A DNA stretch of 33,918 nt from positions 1 to 33,918 of the forward strand of contig NZ_RKIC01000001.1 in the NCBI RefSeq assembly GCF_003755185.1. The letters are read 5' to 3'. Under the pieces are notes generated by a model. That model was given only the letters and a program-made list of their open reading frames with translations, ran no database searches and was not told where the DNA came from. Made by a program: the position numbers and the translations under genes. The DNA is from Frigoribacterium sp. PhB24 (GTDB lineage Bacteria > Actinomycetota > Actinomycetes > Actinomycetales > Microbacteriaceae). Numbering within the stretch: the stretch's first letter is position 1; each line of letters starts with the position of its first letter. Of the stretch, positions 937 to 6,826 are shown piece by piece.

Positions 937-2640
937 TCAGGCGCGTGCCGTCCGGCGGCGGGCCGCCGTCAGCAGGCCGAGCCCGGCGAGGAGCGCCAGC
1001 AGGCCACCCGCGAGCGGGGCCGTCGTGTCGCTGCCGGTGAAGGCGAGCGACGAGTCGGCGGCGAGGGCCGAGGAGGCGCGGGCCCCCGAGGCGAGGACGC
1101 TGCGGTCGGTCGAGGCGGCCGTCACGAGCACGGCGTCCGTCGTGACGGTGGTCCCGTCGGTACCCGGTGTGGTGATGACCTCGTCACCCGGTGTGGTGGG
1201 CGTCGTCGGGTCGACCGGGTCGGTCGGGTCGAACGGCTCGGCCGGGTCGACGGGGATCGTCGGGTCGGTCGGGTCGGTCGGGTCGACGGGGACGGTCGGG
1301 TCGGTCGGGTCGACGGGGACGGTCGGGTCGGTCGGCGTGGTGCCGGTCGTCCCGCCCGTGGTGTCGCTGTCGCCGATCACCGAGACGCCGTTGCCCGACA
1401 GGTCGATCGGCAGCGTGATCACGGGGATGATCTGCGTGCCCCCGAGGATGCCGTCGTCACCACTGGTGGTGTTGCCACCGGTCGTGCCGGTGCCTGTGCC
1501 GGTCGAGCCGGTTCCCGTCGTCGTCCCCGTGCTCGCTGAATCACCGACCACCGAGATCGCGTTGCCACCCACGGTCACGGGCAGCCCCACCGACGGCACG
1601 ACCTGCGTGCCCCCGAGGATGCCGTCGTCACCGCTGGTGGTGCTGCCACCGGTCGTGCCGGTGCCTGTGCCTGTGCCGGTCGAGCCGGCCCCGGTCGTGG
1701 TCCCCGTGCTGGCCGAGTCACCGACCACCGAGATCGCGTTGCCACCCACGGAGACCGGGATCGTCACCGTCGGGATCACCTGGGTGCCCCCGGCGACGGA
1801 ATCGTCGCCGCTGGTGGCGGCACCCGCCGTGCCCTGACCGGTGCCGGCTCCCGCGGCCGGGGCCGTCGTCGAACCGGTGCTGCTGCTGTCGCCGACCACG
1901 GAGACGGCGTTGCCACCGACCGTGACCGGAGCGACGACGTCGCCACCGACCTGCGTGCCGCCGAGGATGCCGTCGTCACCACTGGTGGTGCCGGTGGCCG
2001 AGCCGGCGGGAAGGGCGTCAGCCGCGCCTCCGGCGGGGGCACCGGTCGTGGTCCCCGTGCTGGCGGAGTCGCCGACCACCGAGATCGCGTTGCCACCGAC
2101 CGTGATCGGCAGGGTCACGTCGACGAGCGCCTGCGTACCCGAGCCGATCGAGTCGTCACCCGACGTGGCGGCCGGTGCGGTCACCGCGGGTGCCGGTGCG
2201 ACCGGGGCGGCGGGGGCCTCGACGGGAGCGGCCGTGCTGGCGGAGTCGCCCAGAACCGAGACGGCGTTGCCTCCGACGCTGACGGGCACGTCGACCGAGA
2301 CGATGCCCTGGGTGCCCGAGAGCACGCCCGAGTCTCCGCTCGTCGTCGTGACGGGTGCGGCGGGCGCCGCAGGAGCCACCGGCGCGACGACGGGCGCCGC
2401 AGGTGCCGCAGGCGCCGCAGGTGCCGCAGGTGCCGCGGCGGTGCTGCTCGCGTCGCCGAGGACGCTGACGGCGTTGCCGACGGCCGAGACCGGGGCCTCG
2501 ACGACGGTGCCGACCTGGGTGCCCGAGAGCAGCCCGTCGTCACCGGTGGTGGTCGCCGCGGTGGCGGCGGTCGTTCCGAGGGCCCAGATGCCCCCGACGA
2601 AGAGCGCTCCCATGAGCCCTCTCGAGACGTACTTGTTCAT
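937..2640 (-). CDS. Chaplin-like repeat surface protein with LAFTG sorting signal
   Basis: A 567-residue secreted wall protein. Residues 1-29 form a signal peptide (basic MNKYVSRG, hydrophobic core, Ala-rich end). Seven copies of a ~33-residue unit follow between about 33 and 429, each of the pattern SGDDGxxxGTQ...P-V-x-V-x-GNAxSVxGDSxST. The GN-x-[VI]-S-V-[VI]-G core is shared with streptomycete chaplins, which assemble into amphipathic surface fibrils, but there are no cysteines. Linkers are Ala/Pro- or Gly/Thr-rich. A Pro-Asp-Thr stalk (about 435-485) leads to LAFTG (532-536), a hydrophobic segment and an RRRTARA tail: a class E-type sortase signal. GGAG 8 nt before the ATG at 2640 fixes the start; the upstream in-frame TTG would swallow this SD. 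No sortase is encoded here. A role in surface hydrophobicity or adhesion is inferred. Confidence 0.8.
   Translation of the reverse strand: MNKYVSRGLMGALFVGGIWALGTTAATAATTTGDDGLLSGTQVGTVVEAPVSAVGNAVSVLGDASSTAAAPAAPAAPAAPAAPVVAPVAPAAPAAPVTTTSGDSGVLSGTQGIVSVDVPVSVGGNAVSVLGDSASTAAPVEAPAAPVAPAPAVTAPAATSGDDSIGSGTQALVDVTLPITVGGNAISVVGDSASTGTTTGAPAGGAADALPAGSATGTTSGDDGILGGTQVGGDVVAPVTVGGNAVSVVGDSSSTGSTTAPAAGAGTGQGTAGAATSGDDSVAGGTQVIPTVTIPVSVGGNAISVVGDSASTGTTTGAGSTGTGTGTGTTGGSTTSGDDGILGGTQVVPSVGLPVTVGGNAISVVGDSASTGTTTGTGSTGTGTGTTGGNTTSGDDGILGGTQIIPVITLPIDLSGNGVSVIGDSDTTGGTTGTTPTDPTVPVDPTDPTVPVDPTDPTDPTIPVDPAEPFDPTDPVDPTTPTTPGDEVITTPGTDGTTVTTDAVLVTAASTDRSVLASGARASSALAADSSLAFTGSDTTAPLAGGLLALLAGLGLLTAARRRTARA
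1354..2544 (-). repeat. Seven chaplin-like coding repeats
   Basis: Residues 33-67, ~100-136, ~160-195, ~220-255, ~277-312, ~336-371 and ~393-429 of the protein are homologous units. Units 3-6 are near-identical over VGGNAxSVVGDSxST, suggesting recent duplication or homogenisation. Units 1 and 7 are the most diverged (SAVGNAVSVLGDA and DLSGNGVSVIGDS). Confidence 0.85.
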
Positions 2641-2669
2641 GACTTTCTCCAAGAGATGAGGTGTGTGGT

Positions 2670-4766: not shown

Positions 4767-6182
4767 TCACCGGCCGGCCGAGTACCTCGCGCTCACCTCC
4801 GCCGGGGTCGAGGCCACGTCCAGGACCGTCGTGTCGTCGAGGTCCCCGCGGTAGTACTTGCTCGTCGGCGTCGAGGCCCACGAGACGCTCACCGCGTCGT
4901 AGCCGATCCGCCAGTACCCCCGGGCGTTCTCCGCGGCCGCCTGGTTGGCCGAGCCGACCAGCGTGCCGTCGACGTAGAGGGCCATGCCCGACGAACTCAA
5001 AGTCGCCGTCGCGAGGTGCCACGCACCGTCCGTGTAGGCCGCCGGGCTCTCCACGGTGTAGTACGTGCCGCTGTAGACACCGAAGATCAGCGTGCCCCTG
5101 TCGGTCAGGTAGAGGTGGCGGTCGTATTGACTCGACGCTCCCGACTGGCTGTTACCGAAGCCGATCAGCTTGCCGCCCGTCGTCGTGGTCGTGCGGAACC
5201 AGGTCTCCACGGTGAAGACCTGGGGCCCGTCGATCATCTGCGCCGTGGTGACCTGCCCGGTCGCCCCGTCGAACCGTGCGTAGGGACTCGCGCCGGCGGC
5301 ACACGTGCCGCTGCGGATCGTGGCACCCTGCGTGAGCGTGCCCGCGCGCCCGTTGCCGCTGGCGTCGCGCGCGGTCGTGCCCACGCCGTCGTTGAACTGG
5401 TAGGCGAATCGTGCCTGGGCGGCGACCGGACGGTCGAGGCATGCGAAGCGCGAGGTGGCGAGGGTCGCCCGCGTCGAGGTCGTGGCCGAGAAGGCGGCGT
5501 GACTCGACCCGACGACGACGAAGAGCACGGCCACCCCTGCGACGACCGCGAGGACCGCGCCCGCGGCCCGTGCCACTCGGGTCCGCCCCGTCGGTGGCGT
5601 CCTCGCGCGGTGGCGTGAGAGGGCGAGCGGGTCGACCACGTCGTCGCTCGTCGGCTCGAGGCGGGTCGCGGCGAGCAGGAGCAACACCACGAGTGACACG
5701 ACGAGCACGCCGAGGACACGGTCACCGCCCTGCCACAGCATGGCCGAGCCGATCGCCGGGACGAGCAGGACGCCCACGCCACGGACCGCCTCCGTCGAGA
5801 CGAGGCTCGAGTCGACGTCGGCGTTGGCGTCGCCCCGCAACCGCAACCCCTCGTCGGTGGTGTCGACGAGGCGGTGCAGCCGCAGTGCCCCCGCACGATC
5901 GGGGTCGTCGACGAGCAACACCTGGCCCGCGTCGAGGTCGTCGACGTCGACGGGCATCGCGACGACGACGTCGCCGGCGGCGATCGCGGGCGCCATCGAC
6001 CCCGAGACGACGGTGGTGGGCGACCAGCCCCACAGGGCCGGGACGGCGGCCCAGAGCAGGAGGCACACGGCCGTCGTGAGGACGACCCGCGCGACCGTCG
6101 CCAGGCACAGCGCACCCCAGAACGACAGGTCGGAACGGACCTGCGGGCTGGCGGCGACGGGGGAGGTCGCGACGGTCGTCAT
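4767..6182 (-). CDS. SipW-type (ER/archaeal-like) signal peptidase I fused to a LamG domain
   Basis: A 471-residue membrane protease-lectin fusion. TM1 is about 27-50. The S26B catalytic part follows: SGSMAPAIAAGD with nucleophile Ser62, LRLHRLVD with His103 in place of the bacterial lysine, and RGDANADVD (116-124). TM2 is about 155-172. An Arg-rich presumed cytoplasmic loop (173-205) leads to a third hydrophobic segment (206-224). This ends in SSHAAFSATTS (226-236), the same AFSATTS found right after the signal peptide of the neighbouring TasA-like protein. Residues ~258-470 form a LamG/concanavalin-like domain (VFTVETWFR, MALYVDGTLVG, RGDLDDTTVLD). The gene begins 35 nt behind the TasA-like gene, an evident operon. 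Topology places both the active site and LamG outside. Self-release of LamG is my inference. Confidence 0.85.
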   Translation of the reverse strand: MTTVATSPVAASPQVRSDLSFWGALCLATVARVVLTTAVCLLLWAAVPALWGWSPTTVVSGSMAPAIAAGDVVVAMPVDVDDLDAGQVLLVDDPDRAGALRLHRLVDTTDEGLRLRGDANADVDSSLVSTEAVRGVGVLLVPAIGSAMLWQGGDRVLGVLVVSLVVLLLLAATRLEPTSDDVVDPLALSRHRARTPPTGRTRVARAAGAVLAVVAGVAVLFVVVGSSHAAFSATTSTRATLATSRFACLDRPVAAQARFAYQFNDGVGTTARDASGNGRAGTLTQGATIRSGTCAAGASPYARFDGATGQVTTAQMIDGPQVFTVETWFRTTTTTGGKLIGFGNSQSGASSQYDRHLYLTDRGTLIFGVYSGTYYTVESPAAYTDGAWHLATATLSSSGMALYVDGTLVGSANQAAAENARGYWRIGYDAVSVSWASTPTSKYYRGDLDDTTVLDVASTPAEVSARYSAGR

Positions 6183-6217
6183 GACGGCGGCATCCGGCTC
6201 GGGGGGCGACTCCCGCG

Positions 6218-6826
6218 TCAGCGGGTGGTCTGGGCCTCCCAGGTGAACCCGATCGACGCACGGGAGTCCTGGCCGGTGTTCGGCGTCGACTGGTTGAGCG
6301 TGTACGAGAACTTGAAGGAGCGCGACTCCGCGGCCGTCCCGGTCGGCGACCAGGTGGGGCTGCCGTTCGCGTAACCCGTCCGCTGGCTCGCGAAGTCGGC
6401 GAGCGTGCCCGTCCAGACCTGGGCCCCCTGCGACGCGGGAGTGAACCCGTCACAGGACGCGCTCGACCCACCCGTTCCTTGCTGGATGGTCAGGTCGAGG
6501 TACGACGAGAGCGAGTTGGTCGTCGTCGCCGAGGTGCCGTAGAGCCGGACGGCCGAGGGCACGCTGCCCTTCGAGGTGACCGTGATGCACTTCGTGCCGC
6601 TGTCGCCGGGCACGAGGTTCGAGGCCGAGAACAGGGCGACGTCTGCGTCGTCGTCCGTCAGCTGGACGGTGCCGGTCGACCAGTTGCTGGTCGGGTTCGA
6701 GGTGGTGGCGGAGAACGCGGAGTACGACGCCGTCGAGATGATGGCGCCGGAGGCGATGACGGCGACGGGCACGGCGGCCCAGCGGGCACGACGCGTCCAG
6801 CGGGCGCGACTGATCGATCGGGACAT
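6218..6826 (-). CDS. TasA/CalY-like secreted protein with SipW-type signal peptide
   Basis: A 202-residue exported protein. An Arg-rich start and a hydrophobic stretch (17-36) lead to SYSAFSATTSNPTSNWSTG, the hallmark of SipW-processed TasA/camelysin proteins, with cleavage expected after the Ala before FSATTS. Family features follow: TGTVQLTDDD, then LVPGDSGTKCITVTSKGS, resembling the PGDs...itvkN.Gs strand of TasA, and a beta-rich remainder with two cysteines. In Bacillus such proteins form biofilm amyloid fibres or act as surface proteases; which applies here is unknown. AAGGA about 9 nt before the ATG supports the start. The adjacent signal peptidase-LamG gene supplies the matching protease. 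Confidence 0.8.
   Translation of the reverse strand: MSRSISRARWTRRARWAAVPVAVIASGAIISTASYSAFSATTSNPTSNWSTGTVQLTDDDADVALFSASNLVPGDSGTKCITVTSKGSVPSAVRLYGTSATTTNSLSSYLDLTIQQGTGGSSASCDGFTPASQGAQVWTGTLADFASQRTGYANGSPTWSPTGTAAESRSFKFSYTLNQSTPNTGQDSRASIGFTWEAQTTR

What the first reader, a model, noticed from the sequence alone, without database searches (positions are those of the whole stretch)
4767..6826. Signal peptidase that appears to carry its own SipW-type substrate
Seen: the protein has Ser62/His103 of an ER/archaeal-type signal peptidase, two membrane segments, a basic loop, then a third hydrophobic segment ending in AAFSATTS before a LamG domain. The same AFSATTS follows the signal peptide of the TasA-like protein encoded just upstream. 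Known: SipW-type peptidases process TasA/CalY proteins at such sites. Inference: the peptidase releases its own LamG domain in cis or trans and matures the TasA-like partner, coupling a fibre protein to a sugar-binding module. Topology (active site and LamG both outside) fits.
Basis: partly seen in the sequence, partly recalled or inferred. Interest (0 to 1): 0.76.

Follow-up and report, generated by a model that had tools for sequence, protein, structure and literature searches.

The report
Signal peptidase carrying its own substrate
In these soil and leaf bacteria, the enzyme thought to trim a surface-fibre protein has a binding-type domain attached through the same kind of cutting signal as the fibre protein, so it may cut itself and supply a special end piece for the fibre.

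Summary
P0001 (471 aa, window 4767-6182, minus strand, Frigoribacterium) is a Ser/His-type signal peptidase with two membrane helices, a basic loop, a third signal-like helix, AAFSATTS and a LamG domain. It lies 35 nt after P0002, a TasA-like protein sharing the 7-mer AFSATTS. The layout is a family: 61 fused loci in Actinomycetota, each with a TasA-like gene upstream. The literal 7-mer is rare (6 of 59 junctions), but its type is kept: an aromatic residue (F in 50 of 59) with small residues two and four before it. A profile of TasA-like N-termini has its best match at the junction in 35 of 41 fused proteins, and in 8 of 8 from loci that supplied no training sequence. The cargo behind the junction varies (LamG, Ig repeats, unknown). 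A second, unfused system encodes LamG separately, with an N-terminus resembling its own upstream partner. I infer a self-processing SipW-like peptidase whose released domain carries a TasA-type donor strand and does a TapA-like job (starting, capping or anchoring the fibre). Cleavage and fibre joining are not shown. My searches found no paper on the fusion.

The parts
4767..6182 (-). P0001: S26B-type signal peptidase - third helix - TasA-type junction - LamG fusion, 471 aa
6033..6122 (-). first membrane helix (residues 21-50)
   Evidence: AF2 secondary structure
5766..6023 (-). peptidase beta domain (54-139) with Ser62 (5997-5999) and His103 (5874-5876)
   Evidence: Ser62, His103, Asp118 and Asp124 invariant in 19 fused proteins; profile of 16 fused peptidases matches SEC11C, E 7.5e-9
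5664..5720 (-). second membrane helix (155-173), followed by a basic loop
   Evidence: sequence
5496..5585 (-). third helix and signal-peptide-like region (200-229), predicted cut after Ala229
   Evidence: helix 200-225; small residues at -1 and -3 in 58 of 59 junctions in this register
5475..5495 (-). AFSATTS (230-236), predicted start of the released LamG protein
   Evidence: identical to P0002 residues 37-43
4770..5414 (-). LamG domain (257-471; Pfam 305-464); near-invariant Cys248 and Cys294 lie at its start
6218..6826 (-). P0002: TasA-like protein, 202 aa
   Evidence: AF2 model's two best PDB matches are the TasA fibre 8aur (E 1.3e-4) and Pyrobaculum bundling pili 7ueg (E 4.8e-4)
6719..6826 (-). 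P0002 signal peptide (1-36), predicted cut SYS36|A37-F38
6656..6718 (-). P0002 mature N-terminal strand AFSATTSNPTSNWSTGTV.. (37-57), counterpart of the TasA donor strand

Best explanation
P0001 is an ER/archaeal-type (SipW-like) signal peptidase fused to one of its own substrates. Its active site faces outward; helix 2 brings the chain back in; a basic loop and helix 3 act as an internal signal peptide. The enzyme cuts after Ala229 (SHA|AFSATTS), in cis or between copies, releasing a LamG protein. It also cuts the TasA-like P0002 at the equivalent place (SYS|AFSATTS). The released LamG carries a TasA-type N-terminal strand, which can fill the open groove of a TasA-like subunit. It would thus serve as the low-copy starter, cap or anchor of the fibre, as TapA does in B. 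subtilis, with LamG as a binding head. Shown: architecture, conservation, gene partnership and junction similarity. Inferred: cleavage, its cis or trans mode, strand insertion and ligand binding.
For: Ser62 and His103 invariant in 19 fused proteins. A TasA-like gene ends 9-505 nt before the peptidase domain, same strand, in 61 of 61 fused loci (the profile used was built from 19 such proteins). Junction register: small residues at F-2 and F-4 in 58 of 59, against 18 of 59 one residue later; 26 of 26 against 1 of 26 in the TasA-like proteins (a small F-2 was a filter in the script, F-4 was not, though both enter the profile). Aromatic P2' and the P2 Trp hinder LepB cleavage of the TasA site (passages of PMC10269814). 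Profile of 26 TasA-like N-termini: best window at the junction in 35 of 41 fused proteins, 7.4 expected by length; 8 of 8 from loci outside the training set; in another family 14 of 16 exactly, one off by one (L132), one miss (L129), 4 of the 16 being genes already. Unfused system, 20 loci: LamG N-termini 9.2 of 21 identical to the partners of that system versus 4.7 to those of the fused system. TasA F29 is a donor-strand residue and TapA works through a similar N-terminus (passages).
Against: No cleavage data. In P0001 the likeness stops after AFSATTS: strand-only scoring peaks elsewhere (shuffle p 0.61), and over 41 proteins strand-only scoring puts 22 peaks in the linker. Of the 8 untrained proteins, two (L109, L114) have profile peaks that shuffles often reach (p 0.17, 0.28). 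Within fused systems, own-partner matching is only slightly better than mismatched (6.48 versus 6.08, p 0.067, phylogeny not controlled). A plain HMM of the TasA-like N-terminus found 12 of 41, each at the junction, several with E above 1; a strand-only HMM found 0 of 41. The AF2 junction 226-250 is below pLDDT 50; I did not see it placed at the active site, and coordinates were not measured. The internal site scores 12.1 bits with TIGR04088, cut-off 19. The sequences are related, so the counts are not independent events.
Confidence: 0.6

Rival explanations
1. Helix 3 is never cut. LamG stays on the membrane with the peptidase, presenting the strand as a fixed anchor or nucleation point for the TasA-like fibre.
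For: The AF2 model shows a 26-residue helix 3, long enough to be a stable anchor. Strand presentation without cleavage would still explain the aromatic residue and the strand likeness.
Against: The -1 and -3 small residues are kept in 58 of 59 junctions, which an anchor does not need. The unfused LamG proteins have N-terminal signals with the same kind of site.
Confidence: 0.2
2. The junction is shared only because the same peptidase cuts both. LamG is released as a free secreted lectin-like protein that does not join the fibre.
For: The strand beyond AFSATTS is not TasA-like in P0001, and the within-fused partner test is weak.
Against: In relatives the likeness runs past the cut: strand-only peak at the junction in 6 of 8 untrained proteins. 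Between the two systems LamG N-termini follow their own system over +1 to +16 (6.5 versus 2.9, and 3.8 versus 2.9 identities, relatedness not controlled).
Confidence: 0.25
3. A different signal peptidase of the cell cuts the junction, and the fusion is only co-expression.
For: The genome has other S26-type matches (C1:777 kb and C1:789 kb).
Against: Aromatic P2' residues disfavour E. coli LepB (passages). The fused enzyme is the one next to the TasA-like gene in 61 of 61 fused loci.
Confidence: 0.1

Closest known systems
tapA-sipW-tasA operon of Bacillus subtilis
   Same: Dedicated ER-type peptidase, a TasA fibre protein with Phe at P2', and an accessory protein (TapA) with a TasA-like N-terminal strand; tapA and sipW overlap by stop and start codons (passages read).
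   Different: Here the accessory part is fused to the peptidase, and its head is LamG, Ig repeats or unknown rather than TapA's V-set Ig fold.
sipW-tasA/calY genes of Bacillus cereus with CapP
   Same: SipW-processed fibre proteins plus a SipW-processed assembly helper (passages read).
   Different: CapP is a separate protein whose N-domain is predicted as a three-helix bundle; the passages describe no fusion.
Sec11 / archaeal signal peptidases (S26B)
   Same: Ser/His-type catalytic core; profile of 16 fused peptidases matches SEC11C, E 7.5e-9.
   Different: A third helix, a cleavage motif and a secreted domain are added.
Pyrobaculum bundling pili (7ueg)
   Same: Second-best structural match of P0002.
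   Different: I know of no peptidase fusion there (recalled, not searched).

Membership tests
ER/archaeal-type signal peptidase (S26B, TIGR02228) | Ser and His catalytic residues in the conserved boxes | tested here: met
   Ser62 and His103 invariant in 19 of 19 fused proteins
ER/archaeal-type signal peptidase (S26B, TIGR02228) | score above the curated cut-off 51.85 | tested here: not met
   P0001 42.5 bits; 6 of 6 fused relatives scanned do pass (52.3-74.1 bits)
ER/archaeal-type signal peptidase (S26B, TIGR02228) | peptidase activity | not testable with these tools
   none
Bacillus SipW (NF046067) | score above the curated cut-off 190 | tested here: not met
   34.8 bits; so SipW-like, not SipW
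TasA / camelysin | curated models PF12389 (22.5) and NF046066 (450) | tested here: not met
   P0002 17.6 and 14.4 bits
TasA / camelysin | TasA fibre fold | tested here: met
   best PDB match 8aur, E 1.3e-4, probability 1.00, but TM 0.48/0.42 and rmsd 6.3 on a model of mean pLDDT 71
TasA / camelysin | donor-strand Phe (F29) and partner Pro (P62) | tested here: met
   F38 and P73 invariant in 19; the profile's conserved Pro aligns with the NLKPG proline of 8aur (E 0.022, weak); that this is P62 is my counting
SipW-cognate signal (TIGR04088) | score above 19 bits | tested here: not met
   junction 12.1 bits, E 1.1, fifth of nine matches in the genome
LamG (PF13385) | score above the gathering cut-off | tested here: met
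   70.6 versus 27.6 bits
TapA | TasA-like mature N-terminal strand on a non-fibre head | tested here: inconclusive
   met at profile level in relatives; in P0001 only AFSATTS
TapA | V-set Ig domain | tested here: not met
   LamG instead

The most novel reading that the evidence does not exclude
The fused peptidase is a fibre-starting machine. It holds the first donor strand at the membrane; self-cleavage frees that strand, with its adhesive head, only where TasA-like subunits are being matured. Processing, fibre initiation and tip loading would then be one coupled step in a single polypeptide, with the head domain swapped between lineages.
Probability: 0.33. Interest if true: 0.86.

Novelty: new variant of a known kind. 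Interest (0 to 1): 0.72.

Why it matters
It would be a signal peptidase that carries its own substrate, and a two-gene fibre system (fibre protein plus peptidase-adhesin) spread over Actinomycetota, where my searches showed no report of TasA-type fibres (listings only). It gives a direct test of how TasA-type fibres are started and what sits at their end. It also offers a natural modular display system, because heads are exchanged behind a constant peptidase-helix-strand unit.

Tried and rejected
Considered and rejected. A plain LamG lectin with an ordinary signal: rejected because an aromatic P2' and the TasA-type profile peak are at the junction. A one-off fusion or assembly artefact: rejected because all 16 genus genomes searched have a fused locus and the same layout recurs in distant families. 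The clostridial neurotoxin entries that fill most of the structure-search list of P0001 reflect a shared jelly-roll lectin fold at 10-17% identity; I draw nothing from them.

Led nowhere or weak. Plain HMM of the TasA-like N-terminus (12 of 41, several with E above 1) and a strand-only HMM (0 of 41). Own-partner test within fused systems, p 0.067. AF2 left the junction below pLDDT 50. Promoter and terminator scan found none.

Rows dropped. One search looked at 22 unfused loci; L051 (no SipW-type LamG start found) and L097 (no peptidase match) were left out, leaving 20. One search used 18 distinct unfused pairs of 20 and 23 fused pairs of 58 (fused loci without a stored distinct TasA-like window were left out; L048 was left out for its register). 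One search's 61 loci are distinct by their last 200 residues; the 74 fetched entries are 59 by 90 residues of the peptidase domain, and at least one gene (L111/L138, cut at different ends) counts twice in the 61. In one search, L136 was labelled Ig from its first residues only, and LamG cargo in most of L128-L143 was judged from the sequence, Pfam being run on L142 and L137 only. The first pattern missed most unfused partners and was corrected.

Full report
What is there. Two minus-strand genes 35 nt apart: P0002 (6218-6826), then P0001 (4767-6182). P0001 has an S26B signal peptidase core (TIGR02228 42.5 bits, sub-cut-off), with Ser62 and His103, and a LamG domain. AF2 gives helices 21-50, 155-173 and 200-225 and a mostly well-predicted LamG, with an unsure junction 226-250. 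The loop before helix 3 is basic: across 58 junctions the mean net charge is +5.4 before the helix and +0.2 after the junction, before greater than after in 51 of 58. So the active site and LamG are both predicted outside, and helix 3 has the orientation of a signal peptide.

P0002 is TasA-like. It falls below the curated cut-offs for TasA and camelysin, but its model's two best PDB matches are the TasA fibre and Pyrobaculum bundling pili. It keeps the donor-strand Phe and the partner proline.

The fusion is a family. Each of the 16 genus genomes searched (the own one included) has a fused locus. Titles place the genus as Frigoribacterium and show fused relatives in Pseudarthrobacter, Arthrobacter, Microlunatus, Blastococcus, Modestobacter, Jatrophihabitans and Nakamurella. 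In 197 genomes drawn from the class, 18 match the peptidase half; of 20 places, 10 are fused with junction and cargo, 1 is cut by a contig end and 9 are not fused. In 149 genomes of another family, 15 match at 16 places, all 16 with helix, junction and at least the start of a cargo, L136 being cut there. Over 61 fused loci a TasA-like gene ends 9-505 nt before the peptidase domain, same strand, in 61; the profile used for this was built from 19 such proteins, P0002 among them. The 74 fetched entries are 59 distinct by their peptidase core. In a tree of 92 peptidase domains, 60 fused proteins and one unfused (L113) form one side of a branch with support 100/99, the other 31 the other side; the program warns of long branches.

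The junction. In 19 fused proteins F231 is the only invariant residue in 155-318. In 59 distinct junctions the position is F50, Y4, W2, L2, M1; the literal AFSATTS is in 6. Counting the cut two residues before it, -1 and -3 are small in 58 of 59; counting it one later, 18 of 59; in the TasA-like proteins 26 of 26 against 1 of 26. My script filtered for a small F-2 residue, so only the F-4 part is close to independent; the one miss (L048) is a wrong register. Passages of PMC10269814 give TasA as TWA-AFND with Phe at P2', and report that aromatic P2' residues and the P2 Trp hinder E. coli LepB. SHA|AFSA fits that pattern.

More than a cutting site. A profile of 26 TasA-like N-termini (-4 to +20) has its best match in the linker, in each case at the junction as printed, in 35 of 41 fused proteins (7.4 expected by length); for P0001 the shuffle p is 0.010. 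In 8 fused proteins from loci that supplied no training sequence it peaks exactly at the junction in 8 of 8, though for L109 and L114 shuffles often do as well (p 0.17, 0.28); with the signal and Phe removed, 6 of 8. In the second family it peaks there in 14 of 16, one residue off in L132, and elsewhere in L129; 4 of the 16 are genes already. For P0001, however, strand-only scoring peaks elsewhere, and over the 41 it falls in the linker in 22. Passages of PMC9674648 and PMC10151520 say that TasA residues 28-38 are the donor strand, that F29 sits in the conserved proline box, and that TapA works through a similar N-terminus.

Cargo exchange and the unfused form. L111 and L137 carry Ig repeats (Big_7) instead of LamG; the heads of L109 and L061 have no Pfam match; L045 has two LamG domains. 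In Curtobacterium, Clavibacter, Frondihabitans and others, 20 of 22 loci examined show a secreted partner gene, an S26 gene and a separate LamG gene in that order, LamG having its own signal. These partners match no Pfam or NCBIfam family in the one case scanned (L066); the TasA-like profile finds 12 of 21 of them weakly (best E 1.3e-5 for 5000 sequences, none of the reversed sequences), so TasA-like is a fair but soft label for them. LamG N-termini there match the partners of their own system at 9.2 of 21 positions and those of the fused system at 4.7; fused ones 6.1 against 4.0. Relatedness is not controlled. Within fused systems the own-partner excess is small (p 0.067).

Interpretation. 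The simplest account is a SipW-like enzyme fused to a former separate substrate, keeping that substrate's signal and TasA-type start. Self-cleavage and fibre joining are inference. PMC10151520 says that TapA is as scarce as SipW and that tapA and sipW overlap, so fusing such a helper to the peptidase is plausible.

Print. Ten full-text searches of the held library. No paper held both SipW and LamG, and none held four of five terms on a signal peptidase-LamG fusion. In the others I saw only the listed part of the hits (for example 8 of 113, 12 of 101), with no such title. Subscription papers and preprints are not held. I read passages only of the four papers opened: PMC9674648, PMC10151520, PMC13082335 and PMC10269814.

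Noticed in passing
G000:C8:117066-118496 (L002, L126): A second complete cassette in the same genome: TasA-like gene plus peptidase-LamG fusion (47% identical), whose junction AAFAASAANPTSKFTAGT keeps most of the TasA-type strand.
   Followed up: yes
L100, G000:C1:791858-793316: Three SipW-type signal matches (TIGR04088, one above cut-off) with ALWN starts, about 2 kb from an S26-type match at C1:789547: possibly a further, different SipW-like set in this genome.
   Followed up: partly
window 937-2652, minus strand: 571-aa protein with repeated chaplin-like units (ChpA-C, E 6e-14) and a C-terminal sorting-like tail (my reading), beside a 354-aa protein without a Pfam match.
   Followed up: partly
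L066:5073-7568 and 19 other loci: Unfused operon of partner / S26 / LamG in Microbacteriaceae and one Arthrobacter; the L066 partner matches no Pfam or NCBIfam family, and 12 of 21 such partners match the TasA-like profile weakly.
   Followed up: partly
L061:7620-9341 and L075:7891-9549, minus strand: These Curtobacterium genomes carry both the unfused operon and, next to it, a fused peptidase with an unknown head after AAFAATTTT.
   Followed up: partly
L003/L004, G000:C4:259902-261206: 1574-aa open frame with two LamG domains related to that of P0001 (44-45% identity) and no peptidase match; its signal was not examined.
   Followed up: no
L142:472-2379, L143:1354-2973: Fusions in which the usually aromatic P2' residue is Leu, although their TasA-like partners keep Phe.
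   Followed up: no
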